A DNA stretch of 64,000 nt from Saksenaea vasiformis B4078. Its lineage: Eukaryota > Mucoromycota > Mucoromycetes > Mucorales > Saksenaeaceae. The position numbers were made by a program, and so were the translations under genes. The DNA lies in the NCBI GenBank assembly GCA_000697055.1, contig JNDT01002304.1, positions 62,001-126,000 of the forward strand, written 5' to 3'. This document shows positions 11,548-16,289 of the stretch, in pieces; within the stretch, counting starts at the first letter, position 1; each line of letters opens with the position of its first letter. The notes under the pieces are model-generated. The model ran no database searches. It was given only the letters and a program-made list of their open reading frames with translations, and was not told where the DNA came from.

Positions 11548-11829
11548 ATGCGACAGGGTTTCTGTTACTGGCACGAAATTTCATTTCCAGCCGATGCATT
11601 GGCGGATATCCAGAAGTTTTGTAGATATGAGATTGTTCTCCGAATCAAAAGATGACGAATAAATATACAACGTTTGAGCGGCCGCCGATGTTCGAAGAAA
11701 TATGATCGATTGAAATGATCGCCGCTGTACAATAGCATAAACGCTTCTAAAGAGGACGCACTCATTTTATTTAGAAGGGGTCGTTTGAAAGAAATGACGT
11801 GTGATGTGCGAACACGCAGCATTTACTAA
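11548..11829 (+). pseudogene. Decayed coding segment interrupted by two TGA codons
   Basis: From ATG 11548 one frame reads 94 codons to TAA 11827-11829, interrupted only by TGA at 11653-11655 and 11716-11718. The composition is protein-like: ADIQKFCRYEIVLRIKR, then RINIQRLSGRRCSKKYDRLK, then an SKEDALILFRRGRLKEM segment rich in Arg/Lys. Both stops could derive by single transitions (TGG or CGA to TGA). No family recognised. It lies 0.8 kb upstream of the Fanzor-like gene, with no evidence that they belong together. Confidence 0.35.
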
Positions 11830-12637
11830 ACTTTCGGACGTTCCGATGAGACACGACTATCTTCCTTACTATTTCGGAGTGTACTTTCCTCGGTACCGAA
11901 AGACGCTAGATCAAGCATTATCAATTAGAAGGTGTATTATTCATCATCTCCTTATTCGTCTTTTCCAATTCTTTCCCATACAACAATTGCTATTGAGCGA
12001 AGCGAAAGTCGCAACTTTCAAAAAAAGAGAAGTATGATCAAGCAAAAAATATAAAGATCTTTCTTCTTTTATACCATCTTTTCTTTCACATCATCTCTTC
12101 CTTCACAGTGCGTCTTCTTTACATCATCTTTTTCTTTACATAGATTCTTCCTTCATGCACTCTTTTTTTTTATATAGTTCTTTTTTATCCATATATTCCA
12201 GCAACAAACTTTCGGCAATTGAACAAATTATTTCTTGCCAACAGAATCATCAGCCTTCCATAAAATCTTCTCAATAATATTTCTTTTTCCCATAGAAAAG
12301 CAGTGTTGCGAAGTGAAGCGAGCACCACAGCTAGTATAATTAAGATCTTTGACTTCAAATTTTCAACGCTGATTGGATGAATAAGGCGGTGCTTCAATAT
12401 ACACTGCTTGCAACTTCAAAATAAAGTTTATAGCTGTACTGAACACCCAATACATTTGTTTTTACTCTTTTAATGTGATTTTTTTGTAATATAAATATTG
12501 TTTTCTTAAGATGACCAAATCTAAGGTGACTGGTACCTGAGTGAAGCGAAGATTTGCATGAAATCTTTTAAAACGTCACAAGAAACGCATCCATCTTCTT
12601 TCCTCTTTTTTCTTTTTCATTGTCTTCTGTTACAACC
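11830..12637. other. 5' flank of the Fanzor-like gene
   Basis: AT-rich, pyrimidine-rich tracts (about 12060-12190 and 12600-12630) and three GAAGCGA-type motifs near 11997, 12310 and 12545. No coding region and no clear terminal inverted repeat were seen. Confidence 0.35.
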
Positions 12638-14661
12638 ATGCGTAAAAGACACAGAACCAAATATAAACCTCTACCTCCAAACCAGACATTAATTACATCC
12701 TTCTTCAATCAAAGACCTGGGCCTCAAGATGTGCACAAGCCATTGACAACTCCCCCGGTGGAGTGCATGAGTGAGGACGAATTAATCCACGCTCCAGAGT
12801 GTTCGTTGCCTTCAACTGGTAAATGATATTATGTAGGAAGAATATGAACTCAAAATCATCAGGAAATGTAGGTTCTCTGAAAGGAAAAGAAAGACAGATT
12901 GCAGATTTAGATAATAATTTACAGCCACTGATCAAAACCGGAAGAGGTAAGCCATCATGACATCGTGGTCGTAAACTCAAAAAATGAACCAAAGATGCCG
13001 CAGAGGACGTGAACGAACAGGCTCATCAGGTCGAAGTACCAGAAGACGATGACGTTATTGAAGAATACTCAGGTAGGTGATGTAAAACTACCAAAGCGTT
13101 TAAAGAAGAGTCTTGAAGTGGCTGTCAGAATAGCTATCCGAAAAAGAGAATATTTGTCCCTCACAAACAAGTTCGACCTTATACCAAGCCCTGTGATCTT
13201 GAGTTTAAAGAATTTCATCAAGGAAACGGGAAAGGCTATCGATGGCGGTACATTCAAGCCGGAAAAGTACACCGACCCGCGGGGTGCAAGAAGATTCACG
13301 ATGTTGCCCATATATAGCATGCAAATGCGTCATATCACGGTGGATAATCAGGCACTGGGTCGTTTGATGTATAGATCCGGTCTACATCCTTCCATGTCGC
13401 CTATTAAGGCCACGGAAGCTAGGGAAAAGTATTTTCAATTATTCGACATGTCCAAGATCGGTTATAATACCTTGGAAAGTCTGGAAACAGACAGGAGTAT
13501 CTTTTGGTAAGTATTTTCACTGCTATGATTTATGCCATTCACTGCGTCGCCTCAGGGACAAAATACGGACGGACGGTACCGACGTCGAGTTTCTCTTTAA
13601 GAAGTACAAGGCCCCGTACAATCCGAACAAGAAAACGTTAACGCCTTCTGATATGAAAGCGAAGTACAATGATGCGGTTATTTCGGGTGTTGACCCCGGG
13701 GTATCAAGTGTCTTTGTGAGCGCCGATGGGATAGGCACTTCTCAGCATCGCGTTCGTTCAACCACCACAGAAGAATATTATACTCTATGCGGATTCAGTC
13801 ATGCTACCAGGATTCGGGAAAAATACGTGAAAGGCGAGCCTGAGGTGAAAACGCTGATCAATAATATACCATCATTGAAGACAACCAGCATGGAGAAATT
13901 AATTACTGCGATCCGATATTGCGTCCAGCACCATGAGCGTATCTCTGAATTTTTTAGCCGGGATCAAAGGTTGCTTGCTATTTTCTTTATTTATTTCGTC
14001 ATAACATGTGTATATTTTTTCAGATATGGCAAGTTAAAGTTCAAAACTTATATCCGACGACAAAAAGGTCGAAGTGAGATTGCCAAGAGATTACTCCACG
14101 GTAGCAAGAAGTACGAGCAACACAGTAAGCAAAAAGCACGGAAGCAGAGTAATTCGAAATGGGTTCCTCTTTCTCCGAACGATCAGGCTGAGGAGAAGAA
14201 CAAGCCCACTATCGTCGCTTATGGGAATGGAGGGTTTTCCGGTAGCATGAAAGGCAAAAAGGCTGCACCTACCAAGGCAATTTTTAAGGAACTACAACAG
14301 CAGGCTAGGCGACGAAAGGTAGCTCTACAGTTGTCCAAAAACTGATCGTCGACCTTAAATTCGAAAGGCACCCACATACGTTTTCCTCATAGACGAATAT
14401 CTTACGTCCCAGGTCTGTCCAGCGTGCGAGACTCGAGACTTACAGAAAGCAAATGAAGAAAACGACGCGCAAGGCCATCAAGGATCGACAATACATGCCG
14501 TGCTGACATGTCAGAAAAAAACATGTACGGCCATGTTCTGGAATCGAGATAAAATGGCTGCAACGAATATATTGCACGTGTTTCTTTATATGAGAGACAA
14601 CAACATTCAACGGCCTCCCGCGTTCCGTAGGCCAGAAAAACCTAGCAGTATTCAGTTATAG
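12638..14661 (+). CDS. Fanzor/TnpB-like RuvC nuclease (eukaryotic OrfB homologue)
   Basis: Model: 12638-12818, 12863-12946, 12995-13072, 13119-13506, 13556-13969, 14024-14318, 14368-14661 (1734 nt, 577 aa). Relatives of TnpB are RNA-guided DNA endonucleases carried by transposons; eukaryotic members are called Fanzor. Seen here: a disordered basic/acidic N-terminus (1-115), a helical region, RuvC-I GVDPGVSSVF with Asp290, AYGNGGFSG at 447-455 at the RuvC-II position, FLIDEYLTS with Glu490, a zinc ribbon C497-x2-C500 / C528-x4-C533, and RuvC-III WNRDKMAATNI with Asp541. The acidic RuvC-II residue seems replaced, with Glu490 about 40 residues on, resembling the rearranged site described for Fanzors (family knowledge). 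Six introns of 44-54 nt; the 13970-14023 donor is GTTGCT. Guide RNA and transposon ends not identified. No stop or frameshift seen. Confidence 0.82.
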
Positions 14662-15338
14662 GATACTATTCTTTAGCCTAGTTAAAAGGAAGATAAGTTT
14701 CCTCTGAACTGATGTACCTGCATTTTTATAGCGGTTTTTAAATTCTTTTTTCTTGGCAAACAGCGGCGTTTCTACTGTATGAAGCAAAAAGACCTGTCTA
14801 CTGGCGCAAACTTCACTATTGGTCGGCACAAATTGCTTTGCAAAACTCAGTAGTTATCGCCTTTTTTTTTTTTAAAAAAAAAAAGGCATTATGGTCTCGG
14901 CGAATTGCCAGCTGCATCATGAATGGAGCTCCTGGTCATTCAGACTAGAACCCTGCTCAATATAGATTTTGAGTGGCGATAGAATGGCATCCTGCTTATT
15001 TCGCGATTTGATTTTGAGGATGTTCCGTCCTGAGTCAAAATCCGATTCCCGACGGACCCCCAAAATCGAAATGATGCCAAGAATAAACAAACAAAACATA
15101 AATCTTGGAAGTAACAAAGTATAGCGCCATGTCTTGATAGCAAATTTACTGTTGTACGGTGAGCATTGACTCCATTAATCCTTTTCACGCTTTGATGATA
15201 ACGGTTTGCACTTTTTGCTCAGCCTTTCTCAGTTACAAAGGAAAAGCAGTCATTGGACCCCTTGACTGAAAAAAAAGACAGGAAAAAAAAGGTGTCCGTC
15301 CAAGCGTCCTCGAACTTTCTAAAGACAAGAACACAACC
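14662..15338. other. 3' flank of Fanzor-like gene and 5' flank of methyltransferase gene
   Basis: No protein gene recognised. In TnpB/Fanzor loci the guide RNA often overlaps or follows the 3' end of the gene, so 14600-14900 is the candidate place for one. It contains a perfect A/T palindrome (see 14859-14887). Confidence 0.35.
14859..14887. repeat. Palindrome GCC-T12-A11-GGC
   Basis: GCC, twelve T, eleven A, GGC form a near-perfect 29-nt inverted repeat 198 nt after the stop of the Fanzor-like gene. It could be a Pol III-type stop region, a hairpin, or a relic of element junctions. Function unknown. Confidence 0.7.
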
Positions 15339-16289
15339 ATGGCAACAGCACCCGTACGTTATGAACTTCCAGCTCTTTTTAAGCGGCTAGCACATCAAAA
15401 CCACCCGAGTGTTCAGCACTTGATTCGCCTGCGGGAGAAGAAGCAATACCGATTTGAGAAGGAGGGCGTACTTGTGCAGGGATTGAAGACGATCCGCGAA
15501 TTGCGAGACGATGGATTTAAAATCAGATCGCTCGCCGTTACTGTAATGAAGGATCCTCATGACGAATCCGTTATCAAATTTCCCGCTCTGCAAGTCATTC
15601 ACAACCCTGATGCATTCCCTGCCGAACGTTATTTCGCCTTGGATGTCGATCTGACAAGACGCATTCTTGGAACGGCTTCCCGTCCAGGTCGTCATGAGAT
15701 TTTTGCAGAGATACCAATTCCTGACGCGAAACTTCCTGAAAAGGAGGAAGTGGACCGTTTGCTTGTATTTGATCACGTCAACGATCCTGGTAATCTAGGT
15801 TCATTGGTGCGTACAGCAAAGGCTCTTGGATGGGGTCAAGGTTTGATCACAACAGGCACGTGCGATCTGTACAACGATAAAACAATTAGAGCGTCGCGGG
15901 CGATGTCGCTTCGTTGGCCACATCGACTTGTGCCCATCCCTCGTCTTGTAGAATTTTTAAAGTCGTATGATATGACGCCTGTTGTTGCAGATATGATCCC
16001 AGCAAATAGTTCTAGAGCAGCAGACCTATGGTCTCCTGTTTCAGGTGCGATTGGCGAAGGAAAGATGCCCAGCCCAAGTAGTGGCGTGTGGTTTTGGAAC
16101 TTCAAGGGCAAGCCTCAAGAATTTCCCAAGCGACCTGCATTGATTTTGAGCTCGGAGCACAATGGAGCACAAGGATTGGATGATGAACTAAGGATTTCTG
16201 TGCCAATGACAGCGGGTGTGGAGTCAATGAACGTGGCTAGTGTGGGTAGCATGCTGATGTATGAACTGAACCGTCATTTGGGCCAATAA
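15339..16289 (+). CDS. SpoU-family RNA 2'-O-methyltransferase, Mrm3-like (probably mitochondrial rRNA)
   Basis: Single-exon gene, 316 aa. SPOUT methyltransferases of this branch methylate ribose 2'-OH in rRNA using S-adenosylmethionine, as knotted dimers. The three SpoU motifs are visible: motif 1 DPGNLGSLVRTAKALG (from residue 149), motif 2 LILSSEHNGAQG (about 268-279), motif 3 VPMTAGVESMNVASVGSML (from about 288). The N-terminal part (RLREKKQYRFEKEGVLVQG, residues 27-47) matches the substrate-binding domain of MRM3/RNMTL1-type enzymes. Start is the ATG after ACAACC. An insert (SGAIGEGKMPSPSSG) sits between motifs 1 and 2. The N-terminus is not a strong mitochondrial presequence, so location is inferred from the family. 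AATAAA overlaps the stop codon. Confidence 0.85.
   Translation: MATAPVRYELPALFKRLAHQNHPSVQHLIRLREKKQYRFEKEGVLVQGLKTIRELRDDGFKIRSLAVTVMKDPHDESVIKFPALQVIHNPDAFPAERYFALDVDLTRRILGTASRPGRHEIFAEIPIPDAKLPEKEEVDRLLVFDHVNDPGNLGSLVRTAKALGWGQGLITTGTCDLYNDKTIRASRAMSLRWPHRLVPIPRLVEFLKSYDMTPVVADMIPANSSRAADLWSPVSGAIGEGKMPSPSSGVWFWNFKGKPQEFPKRPALILSSEHNGAQGLDDELRISVPMTAGVESMNVASVGSMLMYELNRHLGQ

What the first reader, a model, noticed from the sequence alone, without database searches (positions are those of the whole stretch)
12638..14661. Apparently intact Fanzor/TnpB-like RNA-guided nuclease homologue in a fungal chromosome
Hand-spliced 577-aa protein with RuvC-I Asp290, a shifted RuvC-II acid (Glu490 in LIDEY), a four-Cys zinc ribbon and RuvC-III Asp541 in NRDKMAATNI. 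No stop or frameshift is visible, unlike the LINE and Tc1 copies nearby, which suggests recent mobility or selection. Family knowledge: some Fanzors are programmable DNA endonucleases with guide RNA from the same locus.
Basis: partly seen in the sequence, partly recalled or inferred. Interest (0 to 1): 0.88.

Follow-up and report, generated by a model that had tools for sequence, protein, structure and literature searches.

The report
Broken fungal Fanzor transposon copy
This is one decayed copy of a fungal jumping gene that encodes a Fanzor nuclease; it still shows the cutting site but has lost about a third of the protein, including the part that should recognise DNA targets, so it is probably not a working RNA-guided enzyme.

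Summary
The locus is a real Fanzor1 homologue: its only PDB matches are Fanzor1 proteins, and the RuvC Asp/Glu/Asp residues, zinc ribbon and published Fanzor/TnpB motif are present. The claim that it is intact is wrong. Five sister copies that span the gene (94-97% identical DNA in the shared 3' part) carry about 1.05-1.1 kb more at window ~13,077. This copy lacks 1,061 nt of a 2,829-nt reading frame (codons 112-465) plus the intron-3 acceptor; read through, exon 3 meets TGA 13078-13080. The missing part precedes RuvC and is present in Rhizomucor and Helicostylum homologues and in ten more distant loci of this genome. By published structures it should read the TAM and hold the guide (inference; structure prediction never ran). 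All five full-span sisters also carry stops or frameshifts. The family has a sharp 3' end, ragged 5' ends, and no convincing TIR or TSD in the copies examined, resembling published Mucor and Chlamydomonas elements: a degenerate member of a known kind.

The parts
11601..11866 (.). ~266-bp MITE-like repeat at the 5' edge of the element; 39 further near-full copies among the 40 candidates scored. Imperfect inverted ends (GGCGGATG... / ...CATCCTCC) and a TTA target read by eye in C629
   Evidence: 40 scored of 430 candidates, 95-100% identity; 34 of 40 rows start at query 8-13, 33 of 40 end at 276-280; 6 rows, the window's among them, start at query 1-2; for its place in C629 and C154
11867..14684 (+). 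Fanzor1 element remnant (5' region, gene, 3' terminus); left terminus uncertain because 5' ends of the family are ragged
12638..12818 (+). exon 1 (ATG start)
   Evidence: aligned in 5 of 5 full-span sisters
12872..12946 (+). exon 2
12995..13072 (+). exon 3; orphan intron-3 donor follows at 13073
13076..13080 (+). deletion joint: shared GG (13076-13077), then TGA 13078-13080 in the upstream frame; 1,061 coding nt (codons 112-465 of the family) missing here
   Evidence: joint read by eye
13078..13506 (+). 3' remnant of family exon 4 (segment before RuvC)
13556..13969 (+). exon 5 with RuvC-I Asp (VDPG)
14024..14318 (+). exon 6 (RuvC)
14368..14661 (+). exon 7 with RuvC-II Glu (LIDEY), C4 zinc ribbon (TNB domain) and RuvC-III Asp (NRD); TAG stop
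14651..14684 (+). conserved 3' terminus of the element (TTCAGTTATAG...CCTAGTTA); possibly also the 3' end of an omega-RNA scaffold (inferred)
   Evidence: 15 sites in genome, 0 for reversed control pattern; 82% vs 64% identity between C533 and C626
14685..14699 (+). flank outside the element; would be the guide if an omega-RNA is made from this copy (inference only, length taken from the 14-15 nt seen in SpuFz1)
   Evidence: PMC10432273 section 7

Best explanation
It is a degenerate, internally deleted copy of a multi-copy Fanzor1 transposon family in a fungal genome, probably mucoralean (inferred from the nearest named proteins). The full family protein is about 942 aa: a long lead with a CxxC..H..C knuckle-like motif, a REC/WED-type segment (inferred), then RuvC and TNB. 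It would work like other Fanzor1s: the protein would bind an omega-RNA made from the element's 3' end, with the flank as guide, read a TAM through REC/WED, and cut DNA with RuvC. That mechanism is inferred from the family, not shown here. In this copy a deletion with at least 2 bp of microhomology removed codons 112-465 and the intron-3 acceptor. The predicted transcript therefore either stops just after exon 3 or, with cryptic splicing or an internal ATG, gives a protein without most of its target-recognition half. I expect no guided cleavage from this copy.
For: Fanzor1 identity: the three PDB matches are G. theta, Spizellomyces and Parasitella Fanzor1 (E 1.8e-6, 2.1e-6, 1.6e-5); motif and triad. 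Copy number: nine other contigs have 94-98% matches reaching the right end (C523, C629, C658, C633, C533, C235, C616, C329, C263), plus the short C165 (97%); 15 right-end sites, of which all but C198 were seen in other calls to carry Fanzor sequence. Deletion: 5 of 5 full-span sisters hold the extra 1.05-1.1 kb, and C658 keeps the last ~244 bp of it before its contig ends. Ten more distant loci (L034, L035, L039, L040, L043, L047, L050, L051, L057, L058; not all independent) keep 318-345 of the 354 codons against 1 in the window copy. P0001 and P0003 keep it too. Decay: 5 of 5 full-span sisters have stops and/or frameshifts, and C633 has also lost the RuvC-I Asp. Need for the lost part: in GtFz1, R85A abolishes and S123A, H126A, Y130A and Q278A strongly reduce cleavage (PMC11423790, passages).
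Against: The remaining 476 codons carry no stop or frameshift, against 1-6 such lesions in the same part of each of the 5 full-span sisters; but 3 of 4 partial copies are also open. Between-copy dN/dS of 0.20-0.51 in this part shows past purifying selection on the family. A 52-nt cryptic intron (13073-13124) is of normal length for this gene and would restore the frame. The assignment of the lost part to REC/WED rests on order along the protein and on family knowledge, because the sequence shows no significant match to solved REC domains and structure prediction could not be run. The R. pusillus protein P0001 by itself matches SpuFz1 only at E 0.96, and P0002, a 579-aa annotated relative, lacks the start of the region as annotated. 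Some loci have none of the region: C425 (contig begins inside the gene), C651, C66 and C165 (short copies), and L006-L008. The deletion was seen in one assembly only.
Confidence: 0.9

Rival explanations
1. A shortened but functional mini-Fanzor: the orphan donor splices to a cryptic acceptor, or translation starts at the internal ATG 13049, and the RuvC/TNB half still binds the omega-RNA, acting as a decoy or repressor of full-length relatives.
For: The RuvC/TNB reading frame is open; a frame-restoring GT-AG pair exists; the internal ATG at 13049 is in frame with the downstream part; published Fanzor1 structures place part of the omega-RNA interface on RuvC/TNB (PMC11423790, passages).
Against: The acceptor is coding in all five full-span sisters; none of the six close copies reaching the right break point shares the deletion; private changes 11 nonsynonymous to 6 synonymous give no clear selection, and one replaces the Trp three residues before the catalytic Asp.
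Confidence: 0.04
2. The deletion is an assembly artefact and the true locus carries a full-length gene.
For: The genome is a draft (666 contigs) and several sister copies run into contig ends.
Against: The joint is clean, with short microhomology, and the copy has 17 private substitutions in codons 467-942, so it is not simply a collapse of the sisters compared.
Confidence: 0.05
3. An intact, recently mobile Fanzor.
For: No stop in the remaining exons; catalytic residues present.
Against: 354 codons missing and out of frame; nearest copies are 97-98% identical over the parts compared.
Confidence: 0.01

Closest known systems
Fanzor1 proteins SpuFz1, GtFz1, PpFz1 (PDB 8gkh, 9cer, 9cf0; PMC10432273, PMC11423790)
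   Same: RuvC Asp/Glu/Asp arrangement and C4 TNB ribbon; E 1.8e-6 to 1.6e-5 with the spliced window protein; SpuFz1 too is transposon-borne.
   Different: Those have REC and WED domains and tested omega-RNAs; this copy has lost most of the segment before RuvC. SpuFz1 elements have 30-nt inverted repeats; I saw none here.
MCi-2 Fanzor1 elements of Mucor circinelloides (Bao and Jurka 2013, PMC3627910, section 12)
   Same: Fungal, no TIRs, constant 3' part with variable or fuzzy 5' regions.
   Different: MCi-2 subfamilies have 11-12 bp TSDs and one carries a partial Crypton transposase; I found no TSD, and did not search for a transposase. Sequences were not compared with MCi-2.
CRe-1/2/3 non-autonomous Helitron2-type Fanzor1 elements of Chlamydomonas (same paper, section 8)
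   Same: 3' ends kept, 5' truncations coupled with internal deletions.
   Different: CRe elements have Helitron ends, and their 5'-truncated copies mostly have 7-19 bp TSDs; ours end in CCTAGTTA and showed no TSD, and no Helitron relation was shown.
Rhizomucor pusillus VTP01DRAFT_6032 (P0001) and Helicostylum pulchrum HPULCUR_003502 (P0003)
   Same: Nearest named proteins found: P0001 is 46% identical over the C-terminal region searched, P0003 was found through P0001; both align along the family protein.
   Different: Both keep the region lost here.

Membership tests
Fanzor1 | D-X(125,275)-[TS][TS]-XX-[C4 zinc finger]-X(5,50)-RD motif (PMC3627910, section 6) | tested here: met
   Asp285, TS488-489, C4, RD; TS-C4-RD part in 0 of 10,000 shuffled proteins
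Fanzor1 | Sequence relation to proven Fanzor1 proteins | tested here: met
   all 3 PDB matches at E<=1 are Fanzor1 (whether a solved Fanzor2 is in that copy was not checked; no tree was built). Pfam PF07282 gives 23.9 bits, under the 26.3 cut-off; 34.9 for P0001
Fanzor1 | REC lobe (REC + WED) before RuvC for TAM reading and guide handling | tested here: not met
   for this copy: codons 112-465 absent. Present in the family. Domain identity of the segment is inferred; structure prediction was not obtained
Fanzor1 | omega-RNA encoded at the 3' end of the element, guide from the flank | tested here: inconclusive
   sharp conserved 3' end 23 nt after the stop; folding no better than shuffles (z 0.07, -0.69, -0.92); no compensatory change seen by eye in alignment A4
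Fanzor1 | RNA-guided DNA cleavage | not testable with these tools
   needs biochemistry
Fanzor1 | Carried by a mobile element | tested here: met
   14 of 14 sister right ends compared stop at the corresponding place (CCTAGTTA or a near variant) and then diverge
Fanzor2 / IS607 or IS200/605 TnpB | Match to TnpB family models | tested here: not met
   no NCBIfam match at E<=1 for the window protein; P0003 27.3 and 22 bits, P0001 21 bits, against cut-offs of 100-425
Helitron-type carrier | TC...CTRR ends with 3' hairpin, A|T target, no TSD (recalled) | tested here: inconclusive
   no TSD found; 3' end is CTAG (variants CTTG, CTAA) followed by TTA; no RepHel gene was searched for
Terminal-inverted-repeat transposon | TIR and TSD | tested here: inconclusive
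   no TSD at the edges tested (longest shared words 8 bp, away from the edges); TIR absence judged by eye; the left end is uncertain

The most novel reading that the evidence does not exclude
A natural Fanzor stripped of its target-recognition half but with the RuvC/TNB half kept open acts in trans as an omega-RNA-binding decoy that damps full-length relatives. [quoted passage not shown] that they are nuclease-dead TnpB derivatives is recalled).
Probability: 0.03. Interest if true: 0.65.

Novelty: new member of a known kind. Interest (0 to 1): 0.22.

Why it matters
Mainly as a correction: hand-spliced 'intact' transposon genes need checking against sister copies, which here exposed a 1.06-kb coding loss. 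The family itself (about a dozen close copies, and 137 TNB-profile matches in one 38.7-Mb genome) is a useful example of Fanzor1 amplification and decay, with a 3'-anchored, 5'-ragged structure like two published cases whose transposition mechanism was left open.

Tried and rejected
Intactness: rejected. Frameshift in exon 6/7: considered because the frame changes near 14,345; rejected because a 49-nt GT-AG intron there aligns in all five sisters and the same split recurs in distant copies. TSDs: none convincing; the longest shared words were 8 bp (C629, C289), not at the element edges. A single true left end: the motif ATTACCAACTCAGATTGGGTG (up to 3 mismatches) occurs at 10 places, 0 for the reversed control, but several left flanks are shared beyond it, so the left terminus stays open. 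omega-RNA structure: not better than shuffles; in A4 the hairpin of the window group weakens in the other subfamilies, with no two-sided compensation seen by eye. Homologue search with the whole family protein: none at E<=0.001 among 7,993 candidates scored; the C-terminal region found one, and that one found two more. Structure prediction of P0003 (alignment A3): never started, machine busy, so no fold search was made. Host species: not identified. Lesion-free C-terminal half as a sign of selection: dropped, because 3 of 4 partial copies are also lesion-free. A first lesion count used a wrong intron-3 edge and was replaced.

Full report
What is there. Splicing by eye at GT-AG sites gives a 572-aa product at window 12638-14661. 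Its three PDB matches are Fanzor1 proteins from Guillardia theta, Spizellomyces punctatus and Parasitella parasitica (E 1.8e-6, 2.1e-6, 1.6e-5). It carries the Asp-Glu-Asp RuvC residues, the C4 ribbon and the published Fanzor/TnpB motif. Pfam TNB scores 23.9 bits, below its cut-off of 26.3.

It is one of many. The window is C582:62001-126000 of an unnamed 38.7-Mb assembly in 666 contigs. DNA search finds matches of 94-98% reaching the element's right end on nine other contigs, a short 97% one on C165, and more distant ones at 66-85% (C651, C66, C626, C289). The TNB profile has 137 matches, with 150 of 388 candidates scored; the window's own exon is not among those 137.

The deletion. In one search the sister matches break at query 1077-1081. 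In C523, C629, C633, C533 and C235 about 1.05-1.1 kb more lies there; C658 keeps the last ~244 bp of it before its contig ends. Aligned and spliced, the five full-span copies share a 2,829-nt reading frame, from which the window copy lacks 1,061 nt, codons 112-465. The joint shares at least GG with both sides (read by eye). The missing DNA includes the acceptor of intron 3; read through, exon 3 runs into TGA 13078-13080. The other five introns align in the sisters.

What was lost. A protein from Rhizomucor pusillus (863 aa; 46% identity over the C-terminal region searched) and one from Helicostylum pulchrum (944 aa) both contain the missing region. A second R. pusillus protein, P0002 (579 aa), lacks the start of it as annotated. 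Ten distant loci of the same genome keep 318-345 of its 354 codons; the window keeps 1 (L035/L050 overlap and L039/L040 look like duplicates, so these are not ten independent copies; L067 overlaps L034). Loci with none of it are C425, whose contig begins inside the gene, the short copies C651, C66 and C165, L006-L008, and pieces of close copies held only in part. The region lies before RuvC, where Fanzor1 structures have the REC lobe that reads the TAM and holds the guide; point mutants there abolish or strongly reduce GtFz1 cleavage (PMC11423790, passages). Sequence alone does not align it significantly to a solved REC domain, and structure prediction never started because the machine was busy, so this domain assignment is inference.

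State of the family. All five full-span sisters carry frameshifts and/or stops; C633 has also lost the first catalytic Asp. Of four copies held only in part, C658 (from codon 384), C329 (from 656) and C263 (from 710) are free of such lesions in what is held, and C616 is not. dN/dS between copies over codons 467-942 is 0.20-0.51, window pairs 0.23-0.41; over codons 113-464, which the window lacks, it is 0.24-0.29 between the two groups of sisters and 0.55-1.31 within them. This fits past purifying selection on the family and decay of recent copies. Private changes of the window copy are 11 nonsynonymous and 6 synonymous, which says little about selection since insertion. Its open C-terminal frame, against 1-6 lesions in each full-span sister, is the only hint the other way; the open partial copies weaken it.

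The element. Fourteen of fourteen sister right ends compared stop at the place corresponding to window 14684, 23 nt after the stop codon, in CCTAGTTA or a near variant, and then diverge; only the C633 match runs on weakly for 18 bp. A pattern for this end finds 15 places and 0 for the reversed control. The last 34 bp are 82% identical between C533 and C626, which are 64% identical overall; 53 of 1,584 windows of that size do as well. Left ends are ragged: 150-bp tandem units, different break points, and a motif shared by ten places. No convincing TSD was found and I saw no TIR. In the window copy the left edge coincides with a ~266-bp repeat that has 39 other near-full copies among 40 candidates scored. 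Published parallels are the Mucor MCi-2 elements with constant 3' and fuzzy 5' parts, and the Chlamydomonas CRe elements with intact 3' ends, 5' truncation and internal deletions (PMC3627910, sections 12 and 8); unlike both, no TSD was seen here.

How it would work. By analogy with tested Fanzor1s, the family protein would use an RNA from the element's 3' end with the adjoining flank as guide (PMC10432273 section 7). Here folding of the 3' end is no better than shuffles and the RNA is unproven. For this copy I expect no guided cleavage.

Literature. Full-text searches for Fanzor with TnpB (54 papers, 30 listed), with Mucor (2), with 'internal deletion' (1) and with 'non-autonomous' (3) gave listings. 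From them I read sections 5, 6, 8 and 12 of PMC3627910, section 7 and passages of PMC10432273, and passages of PMC11423790 and PMC10711439. Nothing I saw describes this locus; subscription papers are not held.

Verdict. A degenerate, internally deleted member of a known kind.

Noticed in passing
window 11601-11866: MITE-like ~266-bp repeat, 40 scored copies out of 430 candidates. The window, C154 and C66 copies all have their left Fanzor-element edge at or within 2 bp of this repeat's left end, which I cannot explain; C66 is only ~70% identical there.
   Followed up: partly
window 12395-12513: About 119 bp present in the window copy and in C523 but absent from C629, C633, C533, C235 and C283, whereas the MITE is shared with C629 and C154: copies look mosaic. 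C523 and C629 differ by dS 0.0085 in codons 113-464 but 0.069 in codons 467-942.
   Followed up: partly
whole genome G000: 137 TNB-profile matches (lower bound) in one 38.7-Mb fungal assembly, some in long open frames (e.g. C419:64464-64676, 772 aa): a Fanzor-rich genome.
   Followed up: no
L037 (C165), L021 (C651): Copies reduced to the last ~150 and ~675 bp of the element with the exact right end kept and no TSD seen.
   Followed up: partly
   Followed up: no
window 15339-16289 (+): SpoU-family RNA methyltransferase reading frame (PF00588) about 650 bp downstream of the element.
   Followed up: no
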